From the NCBI RefSeq assembly GCF_005924265.1, contig NZ_VCLB01000008.1, positions 1 to 64,000 on the forward strand: 64,000 nucleotides of DNA, read 5' to 3'. This document shows, in pieces, positions 1 to 38,514 of the stretch. This DNA comes from Martelella lutilitoris (GTDB taxonomy: Bacteria; Pseudomonadota; Alphaproteobacteria; Rhizobiales; Rhizobiaceae). Every line of letters begins with the position of its first letter. The first letter of the stretch is position 1. A model generated the notes under the pieces. The model was not told the DNA's origin. It was given only the letters and a program-made list of their open reading frames with translations, and ran no database searches. The position numbers and the translations under genes were made by a program.

Positions 1-26
1 TCGTCCTCTGTCATCTTCGTGCTCAT
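1..26 (-). CDS. 5' end of an unidentified gene running off the left edge
   Basis: An ATG at 24-26 on the minus strand is preceded by a strong ribosome binding site (GGAGGT, about 5 bases upstream). Only eight to nine codons (reading MSTKMTED) are inside the window, so the product cannot be identified. The start call rests on the Shine-Dalgarno match alone. Confidence 0.45.
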
Positions 27-380
27 GTCGACCTCCAATCAGTCGACATCCCATGAATCAGACAACGCTCAGCCGGGGAATCCCATTTCTTCAAACTGCG
101 GCAATCCGTCCACACCGCCTAGGTTTGGCGACTGATGCCCGTCGTTTGCAGCCTTGCGGGCTGCAGGCCGCCCGGGACCCGGGCAGAGAAAAAGGCCGGT
201 GAAGTGTTCGCTTCACCGGCCTAATCAATTTCTAAAAACTGAATTGCATTGCTGCGCCATGACGTAAATCGCTACAACTGGATGCGGCCCTATGCGCCCC
301 TACAAGCGAAGCTTGCATAGCCGTAGCAAAAGGCGGAATCAATCAATGACCGCCGCCAGCCGCTCAAACAAAAGCAGCAT
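27..380. other. intergenic stretch downstream of the dCTP deaminase-like pair
   Basis: No convincing gene is visible. It holds the terminator at 189-221 and, on the minus strand, the upstream region of the partial gene at 1-26. I saw no tRNA and no duplicate of the tRNA-Arg 3' end that would mark a prophage attachment site. Confidence 0.5.
189..221 (-). terminator. rho-independent terminator
   Basis: A 10-bp stem (194-203 with 212-221, GGCCGGTGAA/TTCACCGGCC) with an 8-base loop is followed on the minus strand by five T residues (189-193). It lies downstream of the minus-strand gene ending at 381 and would end that operon's transcript. Confidence 0.8.
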
Positions 381-917
381 CTATTGACTTGCAGAAAAAG
401 GGCGTGGAAGTGTTGGAATATCGCTGTCACGGTACTTTCCACTGTACGGTGGGAAGTTCTCAGTGCTGACTCTTGAAACAAAAAGTTGAGCTACCGGTGA
501 CCCCACCGGTAAGACTATTTCGAATGGCGATAGATTGACGATTTCAAACGTTATTTTGCCATTAAACCCAGAGTCAATTTGAGGGTCTGTGCAATGGGTT
601 ATTACGAATAGCCTAGCGAGAGTCCCTTTTGTTTGTATGAATCCCATGTACCCGGCAGGCATATGAATTCGGTCCGTTGAGCACGCAAGTACACATTCAC
701 TTGGTCTGAGCAAGAGTTCTCCTTCTTCAAGTTTTTTTTCTTTATAGAAATCATCAACCTCGTGTAGCCCGTAACGAATGACTCGCCCCTCTTGTTTTGA
801 GGGAACGAAAACAGTACCACCTAACTTGAGTAATATTGATGAACCATCGTACAATTCCAAAGGGCACATTGTATTTCCGAGTATAAGCGCCCTGAGATTC
901 TCTCCCACAATAATCAC
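381..917 (-). CDS. dCTP deaminase/dUTPase-superfamily protein
   Basis: This 178-residue protein has the trimeric dCTP deaminase/dUTPase fold. Compared from memory with E. coli Dcd, residues 96-102 (TKGTLAR) match the RSSLAR motif including its arginine (R102), 108-118 match the motif around the IDPGW aspartate, E125 falls on the catalytic glutamate, and the C-terminal tail (YSGKYRDS, 158-165) matches the YxGKYxGQ lid. It could deaminate dCTP or hydrolyse dUTP. The GTG start at 917 overlaps the TGA of the upstream gene as GTGA, so the two are translationally coupled. The DNA is clearly AT-richer than the adjacent prophage, suggesting separate acquisition. Phage-encoded dUTPases and antiphage dCTP deaminases are both known, so its role as cargo, moron or defence gene is inference. 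Confidence 0.75.
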   Translation of the reverse strand: MIIVGENLRALILGNTMCPLELYDGSSILLKLGGTVFVPSKQEGRVIRYGLHEVDDFYKEKKLEEGELLLRPSECVLACSTDRIHMPAGYMGFIQTKGTLARLFVITHCTDPQIDSGFNGKITFEIVNLSPFEIVLPVGSPVAQLFVSRVSTENFPPYSGKYRDSDIPTLPRPFSASQ

Positions 918-1603
918 TTTGACGAACCTTCCGCGTCTATCTCAGTCTTAATATCAACTCTATCGTTTAATATTGGAGTTCTGTTTGCAAAATAAATAGT
1001 AGCGACAGCGACAACTCCAGATGTCAATATAGTTATGATTAAATTTAATGTATACTTTGGGTCTCTACTAAAGAATCGAATAATCCTCGAAAATCTCCCA
1101 CGTTCTTTGAACTTCGCTGACTGTTGATGTTGAAATAAAGATGCTTTTATAGTGCTGTCTGTTCGAATAAACATTAGGTTTGCAAGTTCCTCTCCCTGCT
1201 TTATTTTTTTAGTTAACCTAGTTGAATTGAAAATGAGGAGCTGAAGATGACCTGAGAAACTCGGATCGACTTTGCCCGCTGCAACTATAAGGCCGTCCTC
1301 CAAAAATGCAGAACCTTTTTGGCTTATTATCCCGACCACGTTGTATGGAACATGAATTTTCTCCTGAACTTCAACCACCACTGACGTTTGCGGCTGAATT
1401 GAAATTTCACCAGATTCTATCATAAACATCGCAGGATCAGATCGAGAGACATTGCTCGCCCATTGATCGCCCAGAGTAAGAATAATATTGAATTGCTCTA
1501 TTTTTTCGGCTTGGCAGTAAATTTTACTCGAGTCCGATGATTTCAGCGCTTCAAACTCTGATAAATCCGTTGTTATCCGGTTCTGCAATGATACGATAGT
1601 CAT
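914..1603 (-). CDS. membrane-anchored dUTPase-fold pseudoenzyme (predicted)
   Basis: I chose the ATG at 1603 (229 aa) because AGAGG lies 5 bases upstream; a longer reading frame to 1777 has no such site. Residues 60-147 carry the same fold as the downstream partner: a strand-rich core with QKGSAF at 95-100, VDPSFSG at 112-118 and a GEELANLMF segment near 137-145. The arginine of the TLAR motif is replaced (L101 by alignment) and the catalytic glutamate is replaced by L123. A basic linker (165-184) leads to one transmembrane helix at about 185-206 and a short acidic tail. The predicted product is a catalytically dead, membrane-tethered subunit or sensor. It is the first gene of a two-gene operon with the active-looking protein at 381-917. 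Confidence 0.65.
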   Translation of the reverse strand: MTIVSLQNRITTDLSEFEALKSSDSSKIYCQAEKIEQFNIILTLGDQWASNVSRSDPAMFMIESGEISIQPQTSVVVEVQEKIHVPYNVVGIISQKGSAFLEDGLIVAAGKVDPSFSGHLQLLIFNSTRLTKKIKQGEELANLMFIRTDSTIKASLFQHQQSAKFKERGRFSRIIRFFSRDPKYTLNLIITILTSGVVAVATIYFANRTPILNDRVDIKTEIDAEGSSK

Positions 1604-2030
1604 TTTACCTCTTTTTGAAATACTCGATGATAGCCAAATCGCCGGAACGATACGAGTCCAGTGTATATCACACCTATTGTCGATGCGTTGATGGTCATTT
1701 TCAGTGTCAGCGGTGGTGATTTGCCTCGAATTAGAAAACCTAAAACGGACGTTCATGCACCCTGCAGCGTTGGTCACAATGGGCTCGAAGTTGACGTTCG
1801 GCTAGGTCAGATCGACTGCTTAGCGAAAGTCGGTTGTCCTGTACCTAGTCCCCGACGCCAACACTCCGCTTGCCGCCCAAAGCTACTGGTCTTGCGTTTA
1901 CTACATGCGTGAAAGCTTCCGGAGAAGCTATAATCAACTGAACGACCTAAAGGGAGGCCTAATGCTGTCATTCATATTGCCACCCGAAACAGCGTAGCGC
2001 CTTTGCCCCCAATATGCCTCGACCAAATCT
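1604..2030. other. intergenic region between cargo operon and prophage late operon
   Basis: No supported gene. It should contain the promoter of the minus-strand pair ending at 381. On the plus strand there is an inverted repeat AGCTTC/GAAGCT (about 1914-1929), a TATAAT at 1929-1934, a strong AGGGAGG at 1951-1957 and an ATG at 1962 that opens only an 11-codon frame ending at 1997. This could be the remnant of a gene interrupted at an element boundary, but nothing confirms it. Confidence 0.4.
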
Positions 2031-2354
2031 TCACCCACCCTTCAACGCCTTAAGCACCTGCATCAACCCATCGGAGAGCCACACCCCGAACCCGGTCCCG
2101 GCCATGGCGGCGCCGAGGATATAGCCTCGGCCGATCTGCTTGATCTTCTGGTATTCGGCGACGAACTCCTCGGTTTCGCCGATGCGCTGTGACAGGGCCC
2201 TGTTCTGCTCGAGCAGACGTTCGTTCTGGTGCTCGACCGTGTTCAGCCGGTCGTGGATTTCATCATTACCGCTGCGGTTTTCGTCCACCTTGCGGATCAG
2301 GGCATCGAGCTTGCCCTGAACCTCTCCCAGATGACGCGCGAGATCGACCGTCAT
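2031..2354 (-). CDS. small coiled-coil membrane protein, last gene of the phage late operon
   Basis: The 107-residue product begins with a charged alpha-helical, coiled-coil-like region (about 1-70) and ends with one hydrophobic segment (about 75-98, containing GYILGAAMAGTGFGVWL). This layout resembles the rhizobial phage family DUF1515, but I assign that only tentatively. It sits just downstream of the holin-like gene in the lysis module, so a role as spanin-like or accessory lysis protein is possible but unproven. GAGGG-rich sequence precedes the ATG at 2354. Confidence 0.6.
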   Translation of the reverse strand: MTVDLARHLGEVQGKLDALIRKVDENRSGNDEIHDRLNTVEHQNERLLEQNRALSQRIGETEEFVAEYQKIKQIGRGYILGAAMAGTGFGVWLSDGLMQVLKALKGG

Positions 2355-2366
2355 GCCCTGCCCTCG

Positions 2367-2789
2367 TTATTTGATGATTGCGCGCAGCCCGGCAACGCCC
2401 GAGCCGACATAGAAGACCCACTGGATCATGTTGCCCGCCCAGGCATCGAGCGGGGCGGGAAAGGCTGCGATCGTCCAGGGCTGCGCATAGATGCAGTCCG
2501 GGCACCAGAGCATGTTGTAAAGGCAGATCGCCGCCCACCAGACGGCAAGCGGCACCAGAAAGAAACCGGCGAACAGCCAGAACCACGGCACGGCAAACTT
2601 CGCCTTGTTGAGCGCCGCCATCTCGCGGGTTTCGGCAACCACCTGCCGAAGATATTCCGCCGTCAGTTCGGCCTCTATCTTCTCCCGGTCTTTTGCCTGT
2701 TCGGCCCGCTGTTCGATCAGGGCTGCGGCGCGGTCGAGAAGACCGCCCGCCCCCAGCTTCGCAAGCCATGTCAGGATCGTGCCGATCAT
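2367..2789 (-). CDS. holin-like three-helix membrane protein
   Basis: The 140-residue protein has three hydrophobic stretches: near the N-terminus (2-18), a strong one around residues 67-95 rich in Trp and Phe, and one near the C-terminus (about 120-138). A charged helix (20-60) separates the first two. The layout resembles the 3TM holins of gene transfer agents and rhizobial prophages. I use ATG 2789 rather than GTG 2795 because it has AGG about 7 bases upstream and forms an ATGA overlap with the stop of the endolysin gene. Its position after the endolysin supports a role in timing lysis. Confidence 0.65.
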   Translation of the reverse strand: MIGTILTWLAKLGAGGLLDRAAALIEQRAEQAKDREKIEAELTAEYLRQVVAETREMAALNKAKFAVPWFWLFAGFFLVPLAVWWAAICLYNMLWCPDCIYAQPWTIAAFPAPLDAWAGNMIQWVFYVGSGVAGLRAIIK

Positions 2790-3736
2790 ACCCACACCTC
2801 ATGACCGGTCAGCGTGTTGATCCGGCGCGCGATCAAATCGCGGTAGCGCCAGGCGAACCACAACGCGGCAGCAACCGCAACGCCCCCGGCGATCCAGCCG
2901 ACCGGCAGGCCGGAGGCCCAGGCGAGCGCGCCGGTGGCGGCGGCCGAGGCCCCGGACTTTTGCGCGGCATCCTTCACGGCCTTCATGTCCCGGCGAAGCT
3001 GGGCAATGGTCGCCGGGCCGATGATACCGTCGTTCTTCAGATGCGGATGCGCCATCTGATAGGCCAGCACCGCCGCCTTTGTCTTGTCGCCGAACCAGCC
3101 ATCGATCGCGCCCGGATCGAAGCCGCGTTTCGTCAGCATGGTCTGGACATCGCGCACGACGGGATCGCCGGTTTCCGGTTCAGTGCCCGTAGCCTTTCGC
3201 GGAACGCCTTCGGGCGCGGCGGCATCCACACCGGTATAGATGCCCTGTTCGAACAGCAGCGCCTCTTCCCTGCGCCGGCGGACAAGGCCGGGCAGTCGCT
3301 TGCCCTTGGAAGTGTTGTAATGCGTGGCGAGATAATCGGCCGCCGCCTTCAGCTTGCCGGCGCGCCAGAGCTTGCCGAAGCGCCATTTGCTGACCACGCG
3401 GCCGCCAAGATTATAAGCAGCGCTGGTTGCGGCATCGAGCTGATACTGCGTGCGATCCGCCGGCGAGTTGGCGACAACTTCTTTCGCGTAGCCCTGATTG
3501 AGCACGGCGCGGAAGATGCGGTCGCCGTCCTCAACCGAGATTGTCGTCTTGCCGGGGACGATCCGCGTGATCCCGATCTTTGCCAGTTCCAGCCGGCAAT
3601 AGGGCGAGTTCATGGTGAAGCCGGCAAAGAGCGTCGGCGTGCCGGTCGGATCGAGATAGGCAACGGTGGGCGCGCCCTCGTGCCCGCGCACGAAGGCTGC
3701 CCCCGGTTCGGAGACCGTGGTGATTTCCATTTTCAT
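2786..3736 (-). CDS. phage endolysin: GH24 lysozyme with peptidoglycan-binding domain and C-terminal membrane anchor
   Basis: This protein would cleave the glycan strands of peptidoglycan during lysis. The N-terminal domain has the GH24 triad spacing E-8-D-5-T at E20, D29 and T35 (HEG, YLDPTG, TPT). A PG_binding_1 domain lies at about 188-246 (DVQTMLTKRGF, DGWFGDKT, GIIGPAT). A hydrophobic stretch at about 272-292 followed by an arginine-rich tail predicts a membrane anchor. I place the start at ATG 3736, 316 aa. The frame is open to 3775 but without a good ribosome site. The gene overlaps the holin-like gene by 4 bases. Confidence 0.85.
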   Translation of the reverse strand: MKMEITTVSEPGAAFVRGHEGAPTVAYLDPTGTPTLFAGFTMNSPYCRLELAKIGITRIVPGKTTISVEDGDRIFRAVLNQGYAKEVVANSPADRTQYQLDAATSAAYNLGGRVVSKWRFGKLWRAGKLKAAADYLATHYNTSKGKRLPGLVRRRREEALLFEQGIYTGVDAAAPEGVPRKATGTEPETGDPVVRDVQTMLTKRGFDPGAIDGWFGDKTKAAVLAYQMAHPHLKNDGIIGPATIAQLRRDMKAVKDAAQKSGASAAATGALAWASGLPVGWIAGGVAVAAALWFAWRYRDLIARRINTLTGHEVWV

Positions 3737-3790
3737 TTTCCCGTGGATTGTTCGCCGGTCAGTCCGGCATTGCATCAGGCCGGCAATCGA

Positions 3791-4123
3791 TCAGGCAAAG
3801 CGTTCGGCCGGCGTTGCCGGCTCCGGCGCGACCTGGAAGGCCGCCAGTTCCGCCGGCAGCGCCACGCCATCGGCCAGACGGAGATTGACGTGATAGCCGG
3901 CGACAGCCGCCATCTCCGGATAGGCGATGCCATCGCCGTCGGTCACGGTCTCGCCGGTCGGGGCATAGACGAGACCGTCGCAGGCCGCGCCCACGGGCTT
4001 GAGCGCCAGCATGCCCGTGGGCAGGCCGGTATCGCGGTAGCCGAGCGGCTCCATCACCCCGGCTGCATTGAGAGCGGCCAAAGCCTCGGCATGGTCTTCG
4101 AACTTCAAAAACACATCACGCAT
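3791..4123 (-). CDS. hypothetical phage protein, fibre-associated
   Basis: This 110-residue protein has no motif I recognise. It lies between the fibre-domain gene and the endolysin, and its start overlaps the end of the upstream fibre gene by 8 bases, so it is co-translated with the distal tail genes. Small proteins here are often fibre chaperones or tail accessory proteins, but nothing in this sequence shows that. Confidence 0.6.
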   Translation of the reverse strand: MRDVFLKFEDHAEALAALNAAGVMEPLGYRDTGLPTGMLALKPVGAACDGLVYAPTGETVTDGDGIAYPEMAAVAGYHVNLRLADGVALPAELAAFQVAPEPATPAERFA

Positions 4124-5201
4124 GGGCCATCGCCTTTCCTTCTAGCGCCGCATCGGTCATCCGGAACGGCCAGATCACCAGTTGATCGTACCAGCCGGCG
4201 GCAAAGCGGTCGGCCGTCGTCGCGTTCTCGTCGCGGCCGAGATAGATCCTGGCCGTGTCGCACAGAAGCTCCCGGCTTGCCGTCACCACGGCATTGCCAT
4301 TGTAGGAGCCGCCGATCGTGTCGTTCTCCCTGTCGAACGCGAAGGCAGCGCCGGCACGCGGCGATGGCTGGGAGAGGCCGGAGGCGAGAACAGCGGTCTG
4401 GTCGACCTCGAGATCGGTTCCGGAATAGCCAAGCAGGGGATAGTAGCTTGCCCCGCCGACGATGCGGCCGACAAAGCCGGTCAGAGCTTCGAACCGGACC
4501 AGAATGGAGGCCTTGTCGCGCTGCAGGAGTGCTGCAACGGCATCGCTCAGCCGCGCCTTGTCGGCCGGCCGGGTTACGGCGCTGCCGCCGTTTGTGACGA
4601 TGGGAGAGCTTGTCACCGCGGACTGCTCGAACTGGGGCAGGATGAAGTAGACCACCGCGCCGGGATCCGCCCGGACGCTGAAGGTCGCATTGGCAACGGC
4701 CGGATGTCCGTCCAGGGTAATCCTCTCATAGGCCGTGTTGGAGACCCTCGTGCCGTTGGCCACTTCGCTGATCCGCAGATAGGCTTCTCCGGCATCCACG
4801 CGCAGATAAGCCGAGATCGAGTGGACGGCGGTGTTGTCCGCGCTTCCCGCCGCCACAGCAAAGGCAACCTCGGTTCCGGCGGAATTGTCGAGCTTGTAGA
4901 CTTTGCCGGTGGCGCAGACCTCGGAAAGCCCTGCGGCGGAAAGGGCAGCGGTATCGTCAACGACCGAAAGCACAGCCGGTGCGGCCGACCCTCCGATCCC
5001 GGTCAGATCGGTCGGGTTGGCGTTATTGCACAGCACCTTGTTGGTCGCCGGACCTTCGAGCAGCAATTGCCGCCGCCCGTTGGTGTGGTCAAAGCGCGGC
5101 ACGTTCGCCGCCGCGATCCTGATTACGCCGTCGGCATCGACATAGGTCGCCGAGCCGGGTCGGGTAAAGTCGATCATCTCCGCAAAGCCTGCATTCCGCA
5201 T
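4116..5201 (-). CDS. phage fibre/spike protein with head-spike-fibre type domain
   Basis: The 361-residue protein opens with FTRPGSATYVDADG (about 12-25) and NVPRFDH, followed by LLLEGPATN. This pattern recurs in phage fibre and spike proteins with carbohydrate-binding-like beta-sandwich domains. The central part (about 75-205) looks like such a sandwich and the C-terminus (about 230-350) like a second, LamG-like one. A good site (GAGGTGAG) precedes ATG 5201. It is likely part of the adhesion apparatus at the tail tip. Confidence 0.7.
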   Translation of the reverse strand: MRNAGFAEMIDFTRPGSATYVDADGVIRIAAANVPRFDHTNGRRQLLLEGPATNKVLCNNANPTDLTGIGGSAAPAVLSVVDDTAALSAAGLSEVCATGKVYKLDNSAGTEVAFAVAAGSADNTAVHSISAYLRVDAGEAYLRISEVANGTRVSNTAYERITLDGHPAVANATFSVRADPGAVVYFILPQFEQSAVTSSPIVTNGGSAVTRPADKARLSDAVAALLQRDKASILVRFEALTGFVGRIVGGASYYPLLGYSGTDLEVDQTAVLASGLSQPSPRAGAAFAFDRENDTIGGSYNGNAVVTASRELLCDTARIYLGRDENATTADRFAAGWYDQLVIWPFRMTDAALEGKAMAHA

Positions 5202-5204
5202 GGC

Positions 5205-5471
5205 TCACCTCGCATATCTGTCAGTGGAAAAATCAAGAATGGCGGCCGGCGGCAGGCCGATCCCGTCGGCATCACCCGCTGCATGGGCCGGCACTTCCCA
5301 CCAGCCTTCGATCGTCGCATAGCGATTGCCGCCAAAATCCAGAATGGCGGCCGGGCCGAGCGTCAGGCCCGTCTCTCTATCCGTTGCCGGAAAGGCGGCG
5401 GACGCCCACCAGCGCCCGCGCCCCGGCGGCGGCGTGGCCGCGAGGCTTGTTCCAATTGTCAGTGACGGCAT
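5205..5471 (-). CDS. small phage protein with repeated AAILDF motif
   Basis: I start this gene at ATG 5471 (88 aa) because GGAG, overlapping the stop of the upstream gene, lies about 7 bases before it. The protein carries two near-identical short repeats (PAAILDFGGNRYAT and PPAAILDFSTDRYAR) at about 38-52 and 73-88. I do not recognise the family. It sits between two tail-fibre genes and is probably a fibre accessory protein. Confidence 0.6.
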   Translation of the reverse strand: MPSLTIGTSLAATPPPGRGRWWASAAFPATDRETGLTLGPAAILDFGGNRYATIEGWWEVPAHAAGDADGIGLPPAAILDFSTDRYAR

Positions 5472-5475
5472 AGTG

Positions 5476-6120
5476 CTACTCCGGCCAGTGGATGTCGGCG
5501 GCAAAGTCAGCCGGGATCGGCGACAGATCCTTCAGCGTCCGGGCGGCAAAGATATGCGCCTGTTTGTGGGCAAGGGCCGCCTGGCCAAGCGCATAGAGGG
5601 TCACGGCATCCATTTTGTGCGTGCTGTTGTCGGCGGCGATCCAGACAAAGTCGCTGTCGCCACCATGCCAGCGATAGTCGCCGGCCTCAGCACCATCGAT
5701 CATGGCGCCGAGAGCGGCCGTTGCCGCGCCGGCAATGTTCTCCCGGTCTTCCGCCCGGGATTGATAGACAACGCCGTTGAACACGAAGCCCGCCGCAATC
5801 CGGCGATCCCGTTCGGCATCGACGGCGTGGCGCAGGCCATGGGCTTTGCGCTCATCGACAAAGGCATCAACTTCATCGCGATGCGCATCGAGTATGGCGT
5901 GGAGATCATTCGGCGTCGGAAAGGGTGCCTCGACCTGCCAGTCGAGGATCACGGCCGAACCAACGCGCTCGCCGGTGTCGTCATCGACAATATGACCGGT
6001 CCGGAAGACTTTTCCCGGTTCAGAGCCGGGATAGGCCAGCGACAGAAGAAAGCCGAGCGTATCGTGATCGAGATCCGGGTTAAGCGCATTGGCGCTGTCG
6101 GGCGTGAGTATCGTCGCCAT
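5476..6120 (-). CDS. DUF4376-like phage tail accessory protein
   Basis: The 214-residue protein ends in a helical domain (about 95-205) resembling the DUF4376 domain common in tail-fibre-associated phage proteins: a start with DAERDRRIAAGFVFNGVVYQSRAEDRENI, interrupted here only for description, and a later WIAADNSTHKMDAVTLYALGQ region. The start codon overlaps the stop of the upstream fibre gene by one base. Function is not known; it may help fibre assembly. Confidence 0.65.
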   Translation of the reverse strand: MATILTPDSANALNPDLDHDTLGFLLSLAYPGSEPGKVFRTGHIVDDDTGERVGSAVILDWQVEAPFPTPNDLHAILDAHRDEVDAFVDERKAHGLRHAVDAERDRRIAAGFVFNGVVYQSRAEDRENIAGAATAALGAMIDGAEAGDYRWHGGDSDFVWIAADNSTHKMDAVTLYALGQAALAHKQAHIFAARTLKDLSPIPADFAADIHWPE

Positions 6121-6974
6121 TACTGGTTCCTCGCATATTTGGCCCGGACATAGATCTCGCGCACAGCCCAGTCATAGTTCTGGCAACGCAGGCCGGTGAT
6201 GAACATGCCATCCGGGCAGTCGACCGTGTTGCCGGTCGTCTGCACCGTGCCGATCTCGTATGTGCCGCTGTCATGCTGGACGCGGGCGCCGGCGGCGGCC
6301 CGGCTGTTGGCATAGGCCGATGCCCGGCTCTCGATCCGGTTGGAGATGGCGGTAAAGGCATCGTTGCTGCCCCAATTGCCCCATACAGAGCCCCCGATAT
6401 TGCCGTCGGTGTAGATGTTCCAGCTTCCGTTCGAGAACCGGCCGTCACTGCCGAAGCTATATTCCCGTCCCCGCGACCAGATGAAGCCATCGCCATTGCT
6501 ACGCTGGCCGACCTCGACATAGCTGTTTGTGCCATTGTTGGAGCGGAATTCGATCCGGGCATCGTTCTGGCCGCTTGCCTGGAACGAGGCCAGCGTCGCG
6601 CCATCGAAGAGCACCCGGACAAAGCCGGTGAGCGTGCCTCCGTTTCTGGCATAGGCGCCCAGCTTGTTCCTCGCATCCGCCGCATCGCCCGCTGTCATCA
6701 GGTCATTGGTGAAGCCGGTACCGCCGGCGCTCAAAAACCCGTGCCCGTCCGGATCCACCTCCCCGATCGCGACATCGGCCGCCCCGTCGAAGACAAAGAG
6801 CTTCCACGGCTTGGAGGCGGTGCTGATCCACATCGTGCCGCCTGTGGCATAGGCCGGGCGTTCGACGCCGCTATGCATGGTAAGGCTTGCCGCCCGAAAG
6901 CTGTTGATATTGGCCGCAAGCTGCGAGCCATTGGTGACGGTCGGATCGATCGTCACGTTGTTATACTGCGTCAT
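6120..6974 (-). CDS. phage tail fibre protein
   Basis: The 284-residue protein is rich in Gly, Asn and Ser and has the low-complexity, repeat-like strand pattern of tail fibres. ADARNKLGAYARNGGT (about 102-117) is typical of the collar or shaft repeats of many tail fibres. The C-terminal part carries two cysteines in a conserved-looking receptor-binding-like segment. The start forms an ATGA overlap with the stop of the tail-tip protein J gene, as expected for a fibre mounted on that protein. Confidence 0.75.
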   Translation of the reverse strand: MTQYNNVTIDPTVTNGSQLAANINSFRAASLTMHSGVERPAYATGGTMWISTASKPWKLFVFDGAADVAIGEVDPDGHGFLSAGGTGFTNDLMTAGDAADARNKLGAYARNGGTLTGFVRVLFDGATLASFQASGQNDARIEFRSNNGTNSYVEVGQRSNGDGFIWSRGREYSFGSDGRFSNGSWNIYTDGNIGGSVWGNWGSNDAFTAISNRIESRASAYANSRAAAGARVQHDSGTYEIGTVQTTGNTVDCPDGMFITGLRCQNYDWAVREIYVRAKYARNQ

Positions 6975-9900
6975 GCATGCACCTTTCCGTAGCCGGCGGC
7001 CACATAGTCGAAACTGCGTTCGACCGGCGTGCCGGACTGGTCCTTGAACACGATGTCAAAGCCGCTCTCATCCTTGTTTGCGATCTCGTAGAAGTCGCCG
7101 AAGCGAAGCCCCTGAGCCGAGACCGAAAGCCCGGTCAGGCCGAAGTAAGGCGGGGCAAAGCCGATCCGTCTTCCCTGCGCAGGCACGGCAAGATTGTTGC
7201 CGCTCAGGATCCTGTCGGGCATATCGACCGTCAGTTCGGCCCGTGCGACGATCGGCGTGATGTTGTCATCGACCGAAGAGAGCAAAAGCCGCATCTGATA
7301 GGCCCGCGCCGCCACATCGCCGGTTGCCGCTTCCCGCCAGTCCGACCAGCGGGCGCCGGCATCATCCGGATCGTCATCCGTGGTGCGCATCTCCATGACC
7401 GCATTCCACTTCGACGCATCCGCCCCGACAATGCCGTCGAGCGCACTGAGCACCGGCCATTTGACCATGGTGTCATCGACATCCTGCCCATAGACCGACA
7501 GAAGCGGCGTCACCCGGGAGGTATAGACCGAGCCAAGATCGATCGTGCGCGCCGAGACGTAAGAGCCGGAGGGCAACAGCCCACCGTCTTGCCGCTCTGC
7601 AAGCCGCAAGCCCGGCTCCCCCGCCCGGCAGCCGTCAAAACGTCCCGACCAGTCCGGCTGTTCGACAAAGCGCTCGACCGCATTCATCGGCGTGGCGCCA
7701 ACCGTGGTCTGGATCATGGTCGCAAGCGGGCTTTCCACCCCCTGCCGGGTCACCGCCTTGATCAGATAGGTGCCCGGCCGCGTCGGGATCTGCACGCTGG
7801 TCGCATCGACATGATCGAGCTGGGCGCCGGATGAGCGCCAGGACACGCCCGTCAGCTCCGGCGAATAGCGGATCACGTAATGCGACAGATTGAGCGCCTG
7901 AACCGGCGCCCAGGTGAGCGTGGCGACATCGCCAATCACTGCAATGTTGAAGCGCTCGACATTGGCCGGCGGCGACAACACGCTTGCGAGATAGACCGCA
8001 TCCAGCGTTGCCCAGGGCGAGCGTTGATTGAGCGCCGCGAAGACCGAGCGAACCCTAAAACTGTAGATCCCCGGATCGAGATCCTGCAGGTCGATCGAGA
8101 CGCTTTCCGTGGCCCCGACCGCAAGCCATATCCCGCCCTGCCCCTGATACTGGACCTCATAGAGCGTGGCCCTCGTATCATTCGGCGCGCTCCAGCCGAT
8201 GGTAACGGCGCCACGGGCGGACACGCCGCCGGCAAGATAGAGATATTCCGCGACCGTCACGTCCGAAGGCGCCAGAAGCGGCCCGGTCGGATAGGTCGAG
8301 AAGGATGGCGGTTCGAGCTCTAGCCCCTTCTCGACGCGATCCCATTTGGTCGCGTCGTAGATCAGCGCCGAGACATCGAACTGATGCTTGTCGTTTTCCG
8401 TGATCGACAGCACCCGGAACGGACGCGGCGCTGCATCGGAACCGGTCAGGATCCACATCGCGCCCGCAACCGGGCGATCCGGCAGGGCCGAGGACAGGGC
8501 AAGCGTTTCTACTTCCCCTGCCCCGGACGTTACCGCCCGATCGGCAAGCGTGCCATCCGGCATGACCACGGTCAGCGTATAGGCATCACCGTCTGTCAAT
8601 GTCACCGGCGCATCGAGCTTGACCGAGGCCAGATCATCGGACGTCGCCTTCACACGCCCGCCATAGCGCACGCCGGCATAGGAGGGATCGGCGACCAGCA
8701 CCACGTCGCCCGGGGCGACATCGGCATGATCGAGCCCGGCCCGATAGGTCACGACCTCGGTCGAATTCTGTTCTGTATCGAGCAGCCATGCCCCGTAACG
8801 ATGCGCCTGCCCGCGCGAGCAGCATCCGATCGCCTGGATCTCGGTCTGACGCGAGCCATACCGCGCCACCGCATCGGCATCCTCGACAATTTCGATGGCC
8901 GGCATATAGTTGTTGGCCGGATCAAACCAGCGGACCAGCACTTGCGTGTGGCGGGCCGAGAGCGCCGATCCCTGATAGCTGAACGTGCCGTCGACCACAT
9001 TGGCGGGCGTTACCAGCTTGACGGGATCGGCAGGCTTGTCACAGACCGCCGTGACAGCACCCGTCCCCCAATAGACCATGCCTCGGAAGACGCCGGCAAA
9101 GGCCGTCAGCACATTGATCGCCTCATCGCGCGAGGTGATGGCGCCATTGAAGGTATAGCGCGGTTCGGTGCCCCCGAACCCATCATCGACCAATTCGTCG
9201 CAGTATTGCGCAATCTCGTAGAGCGCCCATTTGGACACCTGCCCAACATCAACATACTGGCCGAGGCCATAGCGGTCATTGACCACAAGGTCGTGAAAGA
9301 TCCAGGCCGGGTTATCCGTGACAGCGCGTTTGAATGTCCCGTCCCAGACGCCAGCATAGGACCGCGCCTCCGGATCATAGTTCGACGGCACGGCAATCTC
9401 GATCCCGGCCCAATCGACCGAGACCGTCGGAATGGCGCCGCCGCCGAACTCAGCCGCATCGAGCGTCACGCCCATCACGGCGCTATCGGGATAGGTCAGC
9501 CGGTAGTCTTCGATCACCGTATAGGACGACCAGTAGGTCTGGTTGTTCGAGGTCGTGCCATTGGCATCGTCGGAGAGCCGCCGCACGCGGATATACCAGG
9601 GCCCGGCCCCCTCAAGCGGGATCCGGTAGGCCCGGACATAGGGCGAGGTGCATTTGCCCGAGATCGTATCGCTGCGGACTTGGCTCCATGTGCCGTCTTC
9701 GGTGCGGCGATCGATGGCGATATCGACGGCATTCTCCTTGACATTGCCATTGTCGGGATCGGTGAAGATCAGTTGCGGCACCTGGATGGAGACGCGCACG
9801 GCCGTTGCCGCAAGATTGGTGATCGCCCGCGTTGCCGACAGATCCTTTTTGATCTCGACGCCGACGCCCTGTTCGTTCTCGACGGCCGGAAAGCCGGACA

Positions 9901-32721: not shown

Positions 32722-32964
32722 ATGGGACGCCGAACCATTCCATTCACACTGGACGCCGTTAAGCGCGCCATCATGGCCGTCAAAGCCGCCGGCATTGATG
32801 TCCGCACCGTCAGCGTTCGCCCCGATGGCACGGTTGTCATCAACGGAGATAACGGGAATAATTCGGAAGACGATCTGGTCGACCGGTCTCAGCCGGAAAA
32901 TCTGAATAGTCTGGATGACTATTTCGCGTGGAGGGAGAAGGATGCACGTCGTGACAGAGCTTAA
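32722..32964 (+). CDS. small phage protein upstream of the integrase
   Basis: I use ATG 32722 (80 aa), two bases after the preceding stop and with GGAGG 11 bases upstream, rather than ATG 32704. The N-terminal segment (TIPFTLDAVKRAIMAVKAAG, then VRTVSVRPDGTVVING) is common next to rhizobial prophage integrases as I recall. The C-terminus is acidic. It overlaps the integrase start by 23 bases. An excisionase-like function is possible but there is no clear HTH. Confidence 0.65.
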   Translation: MGRRTIPFTLDAVKRAIMAVKAAGIDVRTVSVRPDGTVVINGDNGNNSEDDLVDRSQPENLNSLDDYFAWREKDARRDRA

Positions 32965-34021
32965 AGGCGTGCACAAGGTCAGGAAGAAACTGGCCAGAGG
33001 AAAGATCGTTTATTATTACTACGCATGGCGCGGCGGCCCGCGCATCCACGCGGATCCAAAAACAGAAAAGGACGCCTTCATCGCCGAATATCGGCAGCAC
33101 ATGCTGACCGCATCGACCGATGGCGTCCTGACACTCGAAGGCCTGATCGACCTGTTCACCGGCTCGGAGAAGAAGCCGAATCCCGACTTTCTTGCGCTGT
33201 CCGCGTCAACCCAGCGCGATTACCTGTATGCGTTCCGACTCATTCGGCAGCGCTGGCCCCGCCTGCCCGCGCGCCTCACCCAGCAGCGCGGCATGAAACG
33301 CGATATCAGGGACTGGCACCGATCATTTGCGAAAAACCCTCGGAAGGCGGACAAGCTCCTGTTCGCGCTCTCCAAGGTTTTTTCCTATGCGATCAAGCAC
33401 GAGTACATCGAAAAGAACCCCTGCACCGGCATAGACCGGCTCTATCGCGGCTCAAGACGGGAATTCATCTGGACCGACGCCATGATCGACAAGGTTCGCA
33501 AAGAGGGAAAGCCGCACATCGTCGCGGCCATGGAGGTAGCCGTCTACACCGGCCAGCGCCAGGGCGATATCCTCGCGCTGAAATGGCCGCAATACGACGG
33601 CACCCACCTGTCGCTGAGACAGGGCAAAACCGGCAAACGCGTCAAGGTCAGACTGCACAGGGACCTGAAAGCCCTGATCGACCAGCTCAAACAAGCCGCT
33701 GAAGATCGCAAGGTCCGCTCAGCCAGCATCCTGACAAACAGTCGCGGCCGTCCCTGGACGCAAGACGGCTTCCAAACCTCATGGCGAAAGGAAATGGCCC
33801 GCCTCGGCATCGAGGGCGTCACCTTCCACGACCTGCGCGGCACCTTCATCACCGCCCGCCGCCGGGAAGGCTCCACCGTCGAACAAATCGCCAGCATTTC
33901 CGGCCACACAATCTCGGAGGTCCGGTCGGTGCTCGAGAAGCACTATCTTGCCGATGACCAACAGGCGAGCGATGCGGTAATACTAAGGATGGAGAAAAAT
34001 AGCACGGCTCTCATCAAGTAG
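32942..34021 (+). CDS. int: tyrosine-family phage integrase
   Basis: The start is ATG 32942 (359 aa) with GGAGAAGG directly upstream. The catalytic set is complete: R206 in TGQRQGD, K229, H296 and R299 in HDLR, H322 in SGH and the nucleophile Y335 in KHYL. An arm-binding N-terminal region (1-60) and SAM-like core-binding domain (about 65-165) precede it. It would recombine attP with the chromosomal site, probably the tRNA-Arg gene 4.4 kb to the right. Confidence 0.93.
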   Translation: MHVVTELKGVHKVRKKLARGKIVYYYYAWRGGPRIHADPKTEKDAFIAEYRQHMLTASTDGVLTLEGLIDLFTGSEKKPNPDFLALSASTQRDYLYAFRLIRQRWPRLPARLTQQRGMKRDIRDWHRSFAKNPRKADKLLFALSKVFSYAIKHEYIEKNPCTGIDRLYRGSRREFIWTDAMIDKVRKEGKPHIVAAMEVAVYTGQRQGDILALKWPQYDGTHLSLRQGKTGKRVKVRLHRDLKALIDQLKQAAEDRKVRSASILTNSRGRPWTQDGFQTSWRKEMARLGIEGVTFHDLRGTFITARRREGSTVEQIASISGHTISEVRSVLEKHYLADDQQASDAVILRMEKNSTALIK

Positions 34022-34289: not shown

Positions 34290-35267
34290 ATGACTCTGTT
34301 GCCAAGAAGCTACCGTCTACATGAACTGTCGTATTCAGAGTTTGAAGAGCTCTGTGGCCGTATATGCATTTCCTGGCTTGGTGAAGGTTTCACAACGTTC
34401 GCGCCTGGCAGGGACGGCGGGAGAGACGGAAAATTCTTCGGAACAGCGAATACCTTTCCAAGCGAATCCGAACCACTTGTAGGGCATGTTGTCGCGCAGG
34501 CGAAACATACTTCAGTCGACGGTCGGTCTTGCTCAGACAAAGAGTTCGAACGGTTACTGAAGGATGAACACTCTAAAATATCCAAGCTGATCGAAGAAGG
34601 CCTTTGCGATCATTATGTCGTTTTCACAAACCGGCGTCTAACTGGAGGGACCGAGAAAAAGTTCATCGCCGAACTCGAGAGGCTTGGACTGACCTCAGCC
34701 CACATCGTCGGGACCGAGCGGCTAAAGATGGCGTTGGACACCATGCGTGACCTTCGCGAAAGCCTGCCAAACAGATCAGACACGCTGCCCTTTCATTTTG
34801 ATGATGGCGAGATGGCAGCGGTGGTCAAAGCCTTTAACAACTACGTCTCGGACGACCCACAGTCTGCATTCGACAGCGCAACTGATTTTGAAAAAATCCC
34901 TATCAAGAAAAAAAACACGCTGAATGGCCTAAGCGAAGACTACTACACTCAAGTGATCCGCGTAGATTCGATGCCTCACTTTGAGAGACTCGAGGCATTC
35001 TTAAGAAATCCAAGGAACCAATCTTTTGCCGAGCGATACTACGATTCCGCCGATGAGCTTAAACAAAAGATAATAGTAGAACGCGCCAGATTCGATACTT
35101 TTGATCATGTTTTACTCTTCATCATAGAACGTGTTCAAAAATCGAATCCTGCCCTCCGTGGTCGTCGTAAGCTCGTTTCGATCCTTACTCACTACATGTA
35201 CGTAAACTGTGACATTGGAAAAAAGTCGGAGGCTGAAGTCGATGCTGCGGGCAAAAAAGCATATTGA
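34290..35267 (+). CDS. ABC-3C system effector with Mrr-like nuclease domain
   Basis: The 325-residue protein has an N-terminal PD-(D/E)xK/Mrr-like nuclease domain: FEEL at 18-21, an acidic GRDGGRDG at 40-47 and the QAK motif at 70-72. The C-terminal part (about 165-325) is a helical domain in the place of the ABC-3C C-terminal domain, which couples effectors to the ATPase. In the Aravind-group classification of ABC-three-component systems such effectors are released or activated on invader sensing. It is the first gene of a three-gene operon and its DNA is AT-richer than the phage core. The family call is by pattern; activity is inferred. Confidence 0.75.
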   Translation: MTLLPRSYRLHELSYSEFEELCGRICISWLGEGFTTFAPGRDGGRDGKFFGTANTFPSESEPLVGHVVAQAKHTSVDGRSCSDKEFERLLKDEHSKISKLIEEGLCDHYVVFTNRRLTGGTEKKFIAELERLGLTSAHIVGTERLKMALDTMRDLRESLPNRSDTLPFHFDDGEMAAVVKAFNNYVSDDPQSAFDSATDFEKIPIKKKNTLNGLSEDYYTQVIRVDSMPHFERLEAFLRNPRNQSFAERYYDSADELKQKIIVERARFDTFDHVLLFIIERVQKSNPALRGRRKLVSILTHYMYVNCDIGKKSEAEVDAAGKKAY

Positions 35268-35481
35268 TCCTAACACGTGCACATTGCGGGTTATCACGCT
35301 CGTGCTCGGTGAGTTGCTCCGCCGGCGCACAGTGACCTTCGATGAACTACGCAACTTCGTAGTCCGACGTGCCGGCCCCGACGCCGAACTCGCGTTCCTT
35401 CCAGCTATGGAGGTGATTTTCTTGCTAGGACGCGTTGAATACCGTGAGAAAACCGATAGCTTTGAGTATGTAGTTGTTTAG
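35242..35481 (+). CDS. ABC-3C middle component
   Basis: ATG 35242 has GGAGG upstream and overlaps the effector gene by 26 bases; product 79 aa. It is a small winged-helix-like protein with the family's closing pattern AFLPAMEVIFLLGRVEYREK (about 51-70). Middle components link the effector and ATPase in ABC-3C operons. Its size and place between the two larger genes support the call. Confidence 0.75.
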   Translation: MLRAKKHIDPNTCTLRVITLVLGELLRRRTVTFDELRNFVVRRAGPDAELAFLPAMEVIFLLGRVEYREKTDSFEYVVV

Positions 35482-35483
35482 CC

Positions 35484-37292
35484 ATGCAAATTGAGCGCAT
35501 TACCTCCAATCAACCCGACGTCTTTCGGCCCATTGATTTCAATGCAGGCGAACAATCTGATATATTAAATGTTATATTCGGTGATGTTCGACGCCCAAAG
35601 GACAACAGCCGCGACTCGCACAATCTCGGGAAGACTAAGCTAATCGAAGTAATAGATTTCCTCTTCCTATCTAACCCTGGAAAAGGAAGCCTATTTACAA
35701 AACATGTCGATCGCTTCCAGGAATTGGTTTTCCTCATGGAGCTGCGTTTAGCGTCCAATGATTTCGTCGGCATCAGGCGCTCAGTAGCTGAACCAACTAT
35801 TATTGATCTGATTCGGTCAGAAGAGCGGCTCGGGCACGACGTGGATGATCCTCAGCGCTCTTGGTCACATGTCGGGGTTACTCTGGAGCGCGCCCGACAA
35901 ATTCTCGATGGATGGTTCGCCATGACTATTCTCGGCGAGTATTCATATAGGAAAGCAATCACTTATTTTCTTCGTTCTCAGAACGACTGGCAGGACGAGC
36001 TGCAGCTCCAAAAATTCTCCGTAGGCAAGGATCGCGATTGGAAGCCGTTCGTGGGGCAGCTTTTTGGATACGATCACGGCTTGTTGGTCTCAAAGTACAA
36101 TCTCGATACGGAAGTGCAAGAACTCGAAAAGGAACATTCTCGTCTTGAGGTTCGCGTTGACCTCCGCGATGCAGATCTACCGAAAGTGCGCGCGGAGCTG
36201 GCCGCACTGGAAGGTTCGATCACGGAAACCGAAGATCAGCTTGACAGGTTCCAGTTCGACGAGACGGAACAACGATTGATAAAGGAGCTGGTAGAAGGCA
36301 TCGAAGCCCGCATCTCTGAACTCAACCAGATCGCCTACAATGCCCGTTATGACGCCGAGCAGATCAGTAGGGCGTTGGAGCATAGCGACAGGCTCGACCT
36401 TGATCGTATAGACGACGTTTTTGGAGAGGCCGAACTCGTATTCCCGGGGCAACTTAGGCAGAGTTACGAGGCTCTTTTGTCATTCCGGGCTAGAATCACT
36501 AGGGAACGGAAGGCCGCCCTGAAAAAGCGCCTGGAAGAAATCAACACTCAGCTAGAGGAAATTCGTGCGGAGCGTTCCAAACTTGACGAAGAACGCAGAA
36601 ACCGGCTCGTGATTATCGATAGCGATGACACTATAGAGAAGTTTAAGGCTCTGCAGAACAGCCTCGCAAAATTGCGCCGACGCCGTGATCGCCACCAATC
36701 CGACGTCGATATGCTCGAGGAACTCGGCCGTGCTGCACGGAAGCTGCGTGAAAAGAAACGCGAGCGCGATGCAATGGTGGATAAAATCAATGACATGGTT
36801 TCCGCCTCTTCTAGTCGCTTGATGCGTTTCCAGGCGCTGTTCGATAAGTACTGTCGAGCTGTTCTCTCTTTGGAGGGCATATTTTCATTTCGGGTCAATA
36901 CATCTGGAAATCTAGAGTACGAGATTGGCCTTGGCCTAGATGGACGACGCGGGGAGACCTCTGCTCAGGGAGACGGCACCAGCTACAGAAAGCTCCTTTG
37001 TGCGCTCTTCGACCTCGCACTGCTTCGAACAAACAGAGGCGAGCGGTTCTTCCAGTTCACATATCATGATGGCGTTCTTGAAGGTCTGGATACTCGAAAG
37101 AAACGCGCATTCCTTGACCTAGTTCGCCGGGAAATTAGCGAAGGTGGACTTCAGTACATTTTGACGGCTATCTCATCTGACCTACCTACAGATGAGCTGG
37201 GACGGCCAATACCGTTTGACGATGCAGAAATAGTGCTTCGACTTGACGACACAGGAAATGACGGACGACTTTTCCGTGGCCCTGCATTCTAG
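35484..37292 (+). CDS. ABC-3C ATPase (DUF2326, SMC/Rad50-like)
   Basis: The 602-residue protein has a Walker A of the form NLGKT (47-51, in DSHNLGKTKL) in the first ABC half. A long coiled coil follows at about 205-450. The C-terminal DUF2326 half carries a Walker B-like FTYHDGVLEGLD near 515-530. This is the SMC-like ATPase of ABC-3C systems, thought to sense foreign nucleic acid structures or replication intermediates. It starts two bases after the middle component gene. The neighbour on the right is convergent. Confidence 0.82.
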   Translation: MQIERITSNQPDVFRPIDFNAGEQSDILNVIFGDVRRPKDNSRDSHNLGKTKLIEVIDFLFLSNPGKGSLFTKHVDRFQELVFLMELRLASNDFVGIRRSVAEPTIIDLIRSEERLGHDVDDPQRSWSHVGVTLERARQILDGWFAMTILGEYSYRKAITYFLRSQNDWQDELQLQKFSVGKDRDWKPFVGQLFGYDHGLLVSKYNLDTEVQELEKEHSRLEVRVDLRDADLPKVRAELAALEGSITETEDQLDRFQFDETEQRLIKELVEGIEARISELNQIAYNARYDAEQISRALEHSDRLDLDRIDDVFGEAELVFPGQLRQSYEALLSFRARITRERKAALKKRLEEINTQLEEIRAERSKLDEERRNRLVIIDSDDTIEKFKALQNSLAKLRRRRDRHQSDVDMLEELGRAARKLREKKRERDAMVDKINDMVSASSSRLMRFQALFDKYCRAVLSLEGIFSFRVNTSGNLEYEIGLGLDGRRGETSAQGDGTSYRKLLCALFDLALLRTNRGERFFQFTYHDGVLEGLDTRKKRAFLDLVRREISEGGLQYILTAISSDLPTDELGRPIPFDDAEIVLRLDDTGNDGRLFRGPAF

Positions 37293-38437: not shown

Positions 38438-38514
38438 TGGCGACCCCTGCAGGATTCGAACCTGCGACCGTCGGCTTAGAAGGCCGGTGCTCTATCCAGC
38501 TGAGCTAAGGGGCC
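38438..38514 (-). tRNA. tRNA-Arg (anticodon TCT)
   Basis: The minus strand folds as a full cloverleaf: acceptor GGCCCCT (38514-38508) with AGGGGTC, a D-arm starting TAGCTCAGCTGG, anticodon loop CTTCTAA with TCT, T-arm GCAGGTTCGAATCCTGC, discriminator G and an encoded CCA (38440-38438). Its 3' end faces the prophage side, so the integrated element would begin here and the tRNA is kept whole. Confidence 0.93.

What the first reader, a model, noticed from the sequence alone, without database searches (positions are those of the whole stretch)
381..1603. Coupled pair: active-looking dCTP deaminase-fold enzyme plus membrane-anchored dead paralogue
Two adjacent minus-strand genes joined by a GTGA overlap both carry the dCTP deaminase/dUTPase fold. 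The downstream one keeps the conserved arginine (R102) and catalytic glutamate (E125); the upstream one has replaced both (L101, L123) and ends in a transmembrane helix. Trimeric enzymes of this family build active sites between subunits, so a dead tethered subunit could form mixed trimers, place the enzyme at the membrane or act as an infection sensor. Nucleotide-depletion defence by dCTP deaminases is established; a membrane-tethered pseudoenzyme partner is not one I know. The AT-rich DNA and its place at a prophage edge fit a defence or exclusion cargo.
Basis: partly seen in the sequence, partly recalled or inferred. Interest (0 to 1): 0.75.

Follow-up and report, generated by a model that had tools for sequence, protein, structure and literature searches.

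The report
Prophage pair with membrane-tethered dead deaminase
A prophage carries two overlapping genes, one a deaminase-like enzyme of DNA building blocks and one a look-alike that has lost its catalytic residues and sits in the membrane; similar tethered look-alikes turn up next to other nucleotide-cutting enzymes on plasmids, in prophages and beside defence genes, which suggests a little-known style of anti-virus defence that still has to be tested.

Summary
Window 914-1603 (-; P2, 229 aa) and 381-917 (-; P1, 178 aa) overlap by GTGA; both match Pfam DCD. On E. coli numbering P1 keeps R115 (R102) and E138 (E125); P2 has L101/E102 and L123 there and one strong hydrophobic helix (188-206). Corrections: P1 is not a clean enzyme (S111 is G98, A124 is D111; below the TIGR02274 cut-off), and the two are not recent duplicates.

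The pair is low-GC cargo (41% against 62%) ending at a terminator, in a variable slot behind the lysis genes of a prophage. In eight same-genus slots the contents differ; one holds a DUF4917 protein (PADLOC PDC-S21), one a GmrSD_N protein.

P2 is not alone: 17 of 17 membrane-anchored or fused DCD proteins compared lack both R115 and E138. One group is a conserved operon with a MazG-like enzyme (closest solved structure: dCTP pyrophosphatase 1) and a flavin-oxidoreductase-like protein; in one genome dead DCD and MazG-like parts are fused. The exact P2-P1 pair was seen only in this genome; P2's nearest relatives keep the helix but lack P1.

Best reading: prophage defence or exclusion cassette in which a dead, tethered DCD controls a partner that removes dCTP or dUTP. 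Untested.

The parts
914..1603 (-). P2: membrane-anchored DCD-fold protein, 229 aa, catalytic Arg and Glu replaced
   Evidence: PF22769 4.6e-10; L101/E102, L123; hydrophobic helix 188-206, mean 2.2
986..1042 (-). predicted transmembrane helix of P2 (residues 188-206)
   Evidence: Kyte-Doolittle window 19; helix 182-206 in the weak model
381..917 (-). P1: DCD-fold protein, 178 aa, keeps R102 and E125 but has G98 and D111
   Evidence: PF22769 8.2e-20; TIGR02274 80.8 bits, cut-off 92.8
914..917 (-). GTGA start-stop overlap of the two genes
193..222 (-). intrinsic-terminator-like hairpin behind the two-gene unit (12-bp stem, T tail)
   Evidence: 2 terminator-like sites found, 2.1 expected by chance; this one has by far the longer stem
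123..222 (-). about 100-bp element, including the hairpin, that recurs at the far side of the cargo slot in same-genus prophages
1..122 (.). end of a multicopy sequence, probably an insertion sequence, at which the contig breaks
   Evidence: 97-100% identical copies, most of them at ends of contigs C1, C11, C13, C14, C15, C17
2031..2354 (-). small prophage gene of unknown function that borders the cargo slot
   Evidence: (weak PHROG matches): conserved border of the slot
2367..2795 (-). prophage gene next to the endolysin, function unknown
   Evidence: (phrog_12264 7.5e-36)
2786..3775 (-). endolysin
   Evidence: phrog_7 1.2e-41
32915..34021 (+). phage integrase
   Evidence: phrog_1 1.5e-40

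Best explanation
The pair is a two-gene defence or superinfection-exclusion cassette carried as cargo by a prophage. P2 is a non-catalytic DCD-fold subunit held at the inner membrane; it probably binds a pyrimidine dNTP (or a phage product that resembles or alters one) and holds or releases its cytosolic partner P1. P1 then attacks dCTP or dUTP during infection and starves phage DNA synthesis. Shown by sequence: both genes, overlap, terminator-like hairpin, loss of the two catalytic residues in P2, the hydrophobic helix, the cargo slot and its other contents, the recurrence of dead tethered DCD proteins beside nucleotide-cutting enzymes. Inferred: that P2 and P1 bind each other, that P2 senses, that P1 is active, that phage growth is hindered.
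For: R115 and E138 equivalents are both lost in 17 of 17 tethered or fused DCD rows and in 0 of 29 ordinary rows. Recurrent partnership with nucleotide enzymes: 8 of 8 group-A loci opened (L046, L047, L008, L050, L051, L067, L066, L070) carry DCD, MazG-like and Oxidored_FMN-like genes in that order; residues E43, E46, E78, D81 of the MazG-like protein, which I take from recall to be its metal-binding motif, are invariant in 6 of 6 and its closest solved structure is dCTP pyrophosphatase 1, 1.2e-10. In L066/L058 the dead DCD is fused to the MazG-like part. Slot: window plus 8 same-genus prophage ends with the same borders; contents differ, and two of the 8 hold defence-type genes (DUF4917/PDC-S21 4.8e-119; GmrSD_N, PADLOC NsnA 1.2e-31). 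Low GC 0.411 against 0.615. 13 of 13 genus genomes searched have the two DCD matches of an ordinary double-domain enzyme and one weaker dUTPase-type match, so the pair is not needed for housekeeping.
Against: The P2-P1 combination was seen in one genome only; of the 174 class genomes with some match only 29 loci were opened. P2's nearest relatives have no P1 (3 of 3). P1 lacks S111 and A124 and scores below the TIGR02274 cut-off, so it may be inactive or act on something else. Group A/B partners are not P1, so the analogy is by architecture. Six of the 8 other slots hold no recognised defence gene (small frames, DUF2165, GGDEF-EAL). PADLOC has no model for either gene nor for the group A and B proteins scanned. 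No experiment.
Confidence: 0.42

Rival explanations
1. P2 is itself the effector: nucleotide binding to its dead DCD domain gates the membrane helix, and P1 makes or removes the ligand (dUTP/dUMP against dCTP), so the cell is killed or depolarised on infection, much as RexA/RexB is thought to work (recalled).
For: P2 and 15 of the 16 other tethered or fused rows have one or two C-terminal hydrophobic helices. In L046 the operon starts about 45 bp behind a gene with a Peptidase_S24 domain, which looks like a phage repressor, a Rex-like place; L047 looks the same by eye.
Against: In L066/L058 the dead DCD is fused to the MazG-like part and no hydrophobic helix remains, so the helix is dispensable in at least one member; P2 has a single helix.
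Confidence: 0.2
2. Both proteins are non-catalytic or altered: the pair is a nucleotide or protein sensor or decoy (as Stl-dUTPase pairs are) that acts on phage regulation rather than on dNTP pools.
For: P1 has G98 and D111 at S111 and A124; K-G at R110-S111 is shared by P1, P2 and group A.
Against: P1 keeps R115, H121, D128 and E138 equivalents, which a pure decoy would not need.
Confidence: 0.2
3. Ordinary phage metabolic cargo: P1 supplies dUTP/dUMP for the phage, P2 is an unimportant relic.
For: Phages often carry DCD genes.
Against: The pair sits behind the lysis genes, not with replication genes; P2 is intact with a clear ribosome site and a kept helix; tethered relatives occur on plasmids and chromosomes, several beside genes with PADLOC matches.
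Confidence: 0.13
4. Degenerating or chance arrangement without function.
For: The pair was found once.
Against: Two intact overlapping frames, a hairpin terminator, conserved fold, repeated occurrence of dead tethered DCD proteins in at least three sequence groups.
Confidence: 0.05

Closest known systems
dCTP deaminase / bifunctional dCTP deaminase-dUTPase (E. coli Dcd, M. tuberculosis and B. halodurans enzymes; PF22769, TIGR02274)
   Same: Fold; P1 aligns with 4xjc 1.6e-11 and 2qxx 1.9e-11 and keeps R115, H121, D128, E138
   Different: P1 lacks S111 and A124 and is below the TIGR02274 cut-off; P2 lacks R115 and E138 and adds a membrane helix
Anti-phage dCTP deaminases (AvcID; Tal 2022 and Hsueh 2022, seen only as references in PMC12409349)
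   Same: The proposed outcome, loss of dCTP during infection
   Different: Those enzymes belong to the zinc-dependent cytidine deaminase family (recalled) and are held by a small RNA (PMC12409349, passage); here a protein of the DCD fold at the membrane is the proposed control
Predicted defence domains MazG, MazG-C and dUTPase in DefensePredictor (PMC13092281, section 8 and passages)
   Same: Names MazG, MazG-C and dUTPase as predicted, unvalidated defence domains; the group B locus L053 carries MazG_C
   Different: The text read does not describe dead or membrane-anchored DCD proteins or this pair; Fig. 6F and the supplements were not seen, so overlap with group A or B is possible
Lambda RexA/RexB (recalled)
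   Same: Two-gene lysogen-expressed exclusion pair with one membrane partner; group A operon lies behind a repressor-like gene in L046
   Different: No homology tested or claimed

Membership tests
dCTP deaminase (P1) | DCD fold (PF22769 above 27 bits) | tested here: met
   71.9 bits, 8.2e-20
dCTP deaminase (P1) | curated equivalog TIGR02274 above 92.8 bits | tested here: not met
   80.8 bits
dCTP deaminase (P1) | catalytic Arg115 and Glu138 | tested here: met
   R102, E125
dCTP deaminase (P1) | Ser111 and Ala124 of the active site | tested here: not met
   G98 and D111; S111 is kept in 29 of 29 ordinary rows, A124 is not kept in all of them
dCTP deaminase (P1) | homotrimer and deaminase activity | not testable with these tools
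   single chains only; biochemistry needed
dCTP deaminase (P2) | catalytic Arg115 and Glu138 | tested here: not met
   L101/E102 and L123
Known anti-phage systems as held in PADLOC-DB 2.0.0 | match of P1 or P2 to a PADLOC model | tested here: not met
   0 families for P1 and P2 at E up to 10
Dead tethered DCD class described here | DCD fold, R115 and E138 replaced, C-terminal hydrophobic helix | tested here: met
   P2 with 16 other rows, one of which (the fusion L058/L066) lacks the helix
Group A operon (dead DCD + MazG-like + Oxidored_FMN-like) | MazG-like and Oxidored_FMN-like neighbours | tested here: not met
   none seen beside P2 in the frames of window 1-8000 (by eye; the contig ends at base 1); P1 takes the partner's place

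The most novel reading that the evidence does not exclude
A scattered, previously unnamed kind of immunity in which a catalytically dead, membrane-anchored DCD-fold protein is the nucleotide gauge and switch, and interchangeable partners do the damage: a dCTP pyrophosphatase-like MazG enzyme with a flavin-oxidoreductase-like third gene, a MazG-MazG_C plus uracil-DNA glycosylase set, or, in this window, a DCD-family enzyme. The window pair would be the variant in which gauge and effector share one fold and may mix in one trimer.
Probability: 0.3. Interest if true: 0.85.

Novelty: new variant of a known kind. Interest (0 to 1): 0.62.

Why it matters
Depletion of dNTPs is an established way to stop phages, but how such enzymes stay quiet in healthy cells is known for few systems. 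A dead, tethered copy of the enzyme's own fold as control part would be a simple, testable answer, and the recurrence of dead DCD-plus-MazG operons in Pseudomonadota and a Bacillota plasmid would open a family of candidate systems for which the PADLOC-DB 2.0.0 scans made here gave no model.

Tried and rejected
Recent tandem duplication of one DCD gene: not supported; 26% identity over 93 residues and a tree (35 rows, 9 of 32 inner branches well supported, long branches for both) that joins them in 17% of 200 bootstrap trees.

Empty slot on contig C16 of the own genome: I first read L080 as a related prophage end without the pair (78 bp between the border gene and the element; and notebook entry 3). 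On rechecking, the fragment of the border gene and the element stand there in the opposite order to the window, so it is a rearranged remnant and is not counted.

tRNA-Arg as the att site: withdrawn. A 58-bp piece of the window's tRNA-Arg (38438-38514) recurs on C16 (96.6%) and in G948 (57 of 57), but the G948 copy is part of a complete tRNA gene and lies inverted to what a direct att repeat would need. The integration site is not settled. No direct repeat of 14 bases or more joins 1-2500 with the rest of the window except 2068/13759.

P2 as a general housekeeping protein: P2-like proteins do sit between genes that look like coaBC and moeB (by eye) in G653, G943 and G524, but only 2 of 61 genomes searched around G653 and 1 of 59 around G524 have them (the centres are included), so they are sporadic. 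That dut is often next to coaBC in this class is recalled; whether those genomes have dut elsewhere was not tested.

Helical partner of group B (A7) as a MazG relative: hhalign gave probability 1.2 and the PDB search nothing below 0.13, so no claim.

Structure: AlphaFold models were poor (P2 mean pLDDT 56.5, pTM 0.46; P1 61.1, 0.54; six rows each); used only as weak support of the fold. No heterotrimer could be predicted.

Rfam: no match in 1-2100.

Full report
What is there. On the minus strand, P2 (914-1603) and P1 (381-917) overlap by GTGA. P2 has a clear ribosome site, P1 a weaker one. A hairpin with a 12-bp stem and a T tail at 222-193 lies about 160 bases behind P1, so the two genes are probably the whole operon. 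GC is 0.411 for the pair and 0.615 for 2031-34021.

Fold and residues. Pfam DCD matches P1 at 8.2e-20 and P2 at 4.6e-10. With E. coli Dcd (L092) in the alignment, P1 has K97, G98, R102, H108, D111, D115, E125 at R110, S111, R115, H121, A124, D128, E138; P2 has K96, G97, L101/E102 and L123 at R110, S111, R115 and E138. That E138 of E. coli and E145 of M. jannaschii are catalytic is recalled and fits the titles of mutant structures. P1 departs at S111 and A124 and misses the TIGR02274 cut-off (80.8 against 92.8 bits). P2 carries a hydrophobic stretch at 188-206, followed by about 23 residues.

The rest of the genome. The own genome has an ordinary double-domain DCD frame (373 codons) and a dUTPase-type frame. 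All 13 genomes of the genus searched, the own one included, have the two DCD matches of that enzyme and one weaker dUTPase-type match; only the own genome has the pair, and G948 has one further DCD match, which is a group A operon.

Where it sits. The window is the first 64 kb of contig C17. It holds a prophage with integrase (32915-34021), terminase, major head protein and endolysin. Bases 1-122 are a multicopy sequence found at many contig ends, probably an insertion sequence, so the true left end of the prophage is not seen. IMG/VR holds the same prophage and starts it at the P2/P1 border (L006).

The slot. The 123-222 element has matches in same-genus genomes. I took all 12 such places (one of them already fetched). 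In 8 (L081, L082, L083, L085, L086, L088, L090, L091) the element and the border gene 2031-2354 stand in the order and orientation of the window; in L080 the order is reversed; in L084, L087 and L089 the border gene is absent. In 6 of the 8 (not L082, L085) a D12-type methylase frame lies beyond the element (L081, L088, L090 confirmed by Pfam), which puts the slot inside the prophages. Slot contents: window, P2-P1; L081, 404 bp with a 75-aa frame; L082 and L083, about 555 bp, 87% alike; L085, 1192 bp with two small hydrophobic frames; L086, a GmrSD_N protein (PADLOC NsnA 1.2e-31) with a 211-aa neighbour; L088, a DUF4917 protein (PADLOC PDC-S21 4.8e-119); L090, DUF2165 and a GGDEF-EAL protein; L091, DUF2165. 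So 2 of the 8 other slots hold defence-type genes and 6 do not.

Relatives of P2. In 297 genomes of the family 5 had a match, the own one included; only the own one was full-length. Of the four others, L002, L003 and L004 turned out to be tethered dead DCD proteins of other groups and L005 a dUTPase-type frame. In 385 genomes of the class 174 had some match; 29 loci (L015-L043) were opened: L015 (1.1e-16) and L020 (5.9e-8) have a C-terminal helix, the other 27 have none by the same test. The other matches were not opened. L061 came from relatives of G653. L015, L020 and L061 lie between frames that look like coaBC and moeB (by eye), without P1. tblastn of P2 gave 44 phage and 8 plasmid records, none covering 80%. 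IMG/VR gave only the same prophage for P2 and nothing for P1.

A wider class. Group A: dead DCD with two helices, MazG-like gene, Oxidored_FMN-like gene, in prophages L046 and L047, plasmids L008 (Priestia), L050 (Rhizobium beringeri) and L051 (Sinorhizobium meliloti), and genome stretches L067 (of which L002 is a part), L066 and L070; the third gene was confirmed by blastp in 7 of 7 others against L046. In L066 (first seen as L058) DCD and MazG-like parts are one 367-aa frame without a helix. L070 is from the genus of the window and lies directly behind a D12-type methylase gene, the kind of gene that also borders the slot. Neighbours with PADLOC matches: L050 GajB (6.9e-248), L051 and L067 CARF-type proteins, L066 a type II methylase, L008 the first fifth of PDC-S60 (2.3e-27); that is 5 of 8 loci, but methylase and CARF models are broad, and neighbours of L046, L047 and L070 were not scanned with PADLOC. 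Group B: dead DCD with one helix, on plasmids L007 and L052-L056 and in L003/L059 and L062; in L007, L003, L056, L062 and L054 the gene before it is a helical protein (no Pfam match in the three scanned: L003, L007, L062); in L052-L055 the records show uracil-DNA glycosylase and peptidases nearby and, in L052, L053 and L055, a MazG/NTP-pyrophosphohydrolase. I confirmed MazG_C and UDG by Pfam in L053 only, and the ImmA/IrrE peptidase of L052 matches capP (6.7e-19). These are rare: 1 of 299 phylum genomes for group A and 1 of 199 family genomes for group B at E up to 1e-15. In one search, 17 of 17 tethered or fused rows lack R115 and E138; 29 of 29 ordinary rows keep S111, R115 and E138. The ordinary rows were mostly picked as best matches to P2 in one class, so they are not an even sample.

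How it may work. The dead DCD is repeatedly joined, by operon or fusion, to an enzyme of the kind that cuts nucleoside triphosphates; the MazG-like partner keeps its acidic residues and is closest to dCTP pyrophosphatase 1. The simplest common reading is that the dead DCD binds a pyrimidine nucleotide and controls the partner at the membrane, and that in this window the partner is P1. The fusion without helix speaks for direct coupling and against the helix being the killing part in every member. None of this is tested.

Literature. Ten searches were made. No paper held joined dCTP deaminase, transmembrane, MazG and defense, nor dCTP deaminase, uracil-DNA glycosylase and phage defense. DefensePredictor (PMC13092281; section 8 and passages) lists MazG, MazG-C and dUTPase as predicted, unvalidated defence domains and cites Burroughs 2015, which is not held and may describe related systems. 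PMC12409349 and PMC11084316 (passages) state that dCTP deaminases deplete nucleotides in defence. PMC10511110: start of the abstract in the listing and a word search without hits. That AvcD-type enzymes have another fold is recalled. Any claim of novelty is limited to these searches.

Verdict. The pair being seen once and the odd active site of P1 keep the score moderate.

Noticed in passing
L046:5031-7110, L047, L008, L050, L051, L066, L067, L070: Conserved three-gene operon: dead DCD with two helices, MazG-like enzyme, Oxidored_FMN-like protein; DCD and MazG-like parts fused in L066/L058.
   Followed up: partly
L052-L056, L007, L003, L062: Plasmid and genome loci with a dead DCD-helix protein beside MazG/MazG_C, uracil-DNA glycosylase and peptidase genes, or beside an unassigned helical protein.
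   Followed up: partly
L015/L049, L020, L061: Orphan P2-like tethered dead DCD proteins in the same chromosomal place (between coaBC-like and moeB-like frames) in three genomes of two families.
   Followed up: partly
window 123-2031 and same-genus loci L081-L083, L085, L086, L088, L090, L091: Variable cargo slot behind the lysis genes of a prophage family; contents include DUF4917 (PDC-S21) and GmrSD_N genes; a D12-type methylase lies beyond it in 6 of 8.
   Followed up: partly
own genome C16:366337-370331 (L080): Two partial copies of the tRNA-Arg found at window 38438-38514 and a rearranged remnant of a related prophage end.
   Followed up: partly
window 1-122: Multicopy sequence at many contig ends of this assembly, probably an insertion sequence next to the pair.
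   Followed up: partly
L044:2788-3360 (Helicobacter prophage): DCD-fold protein that keeps S111 and R115 but has Ile for the catalytic Glu, without a membrane helix.
   Followed up: no
window 34290-37292: Frames between integrase and tRNA-Arg (602 aa of phrog_5467, unknown function, and a 325-aa neighbour), without a DNA match in 12 of 12 other genomes of the genus searched.
   Followed up: no
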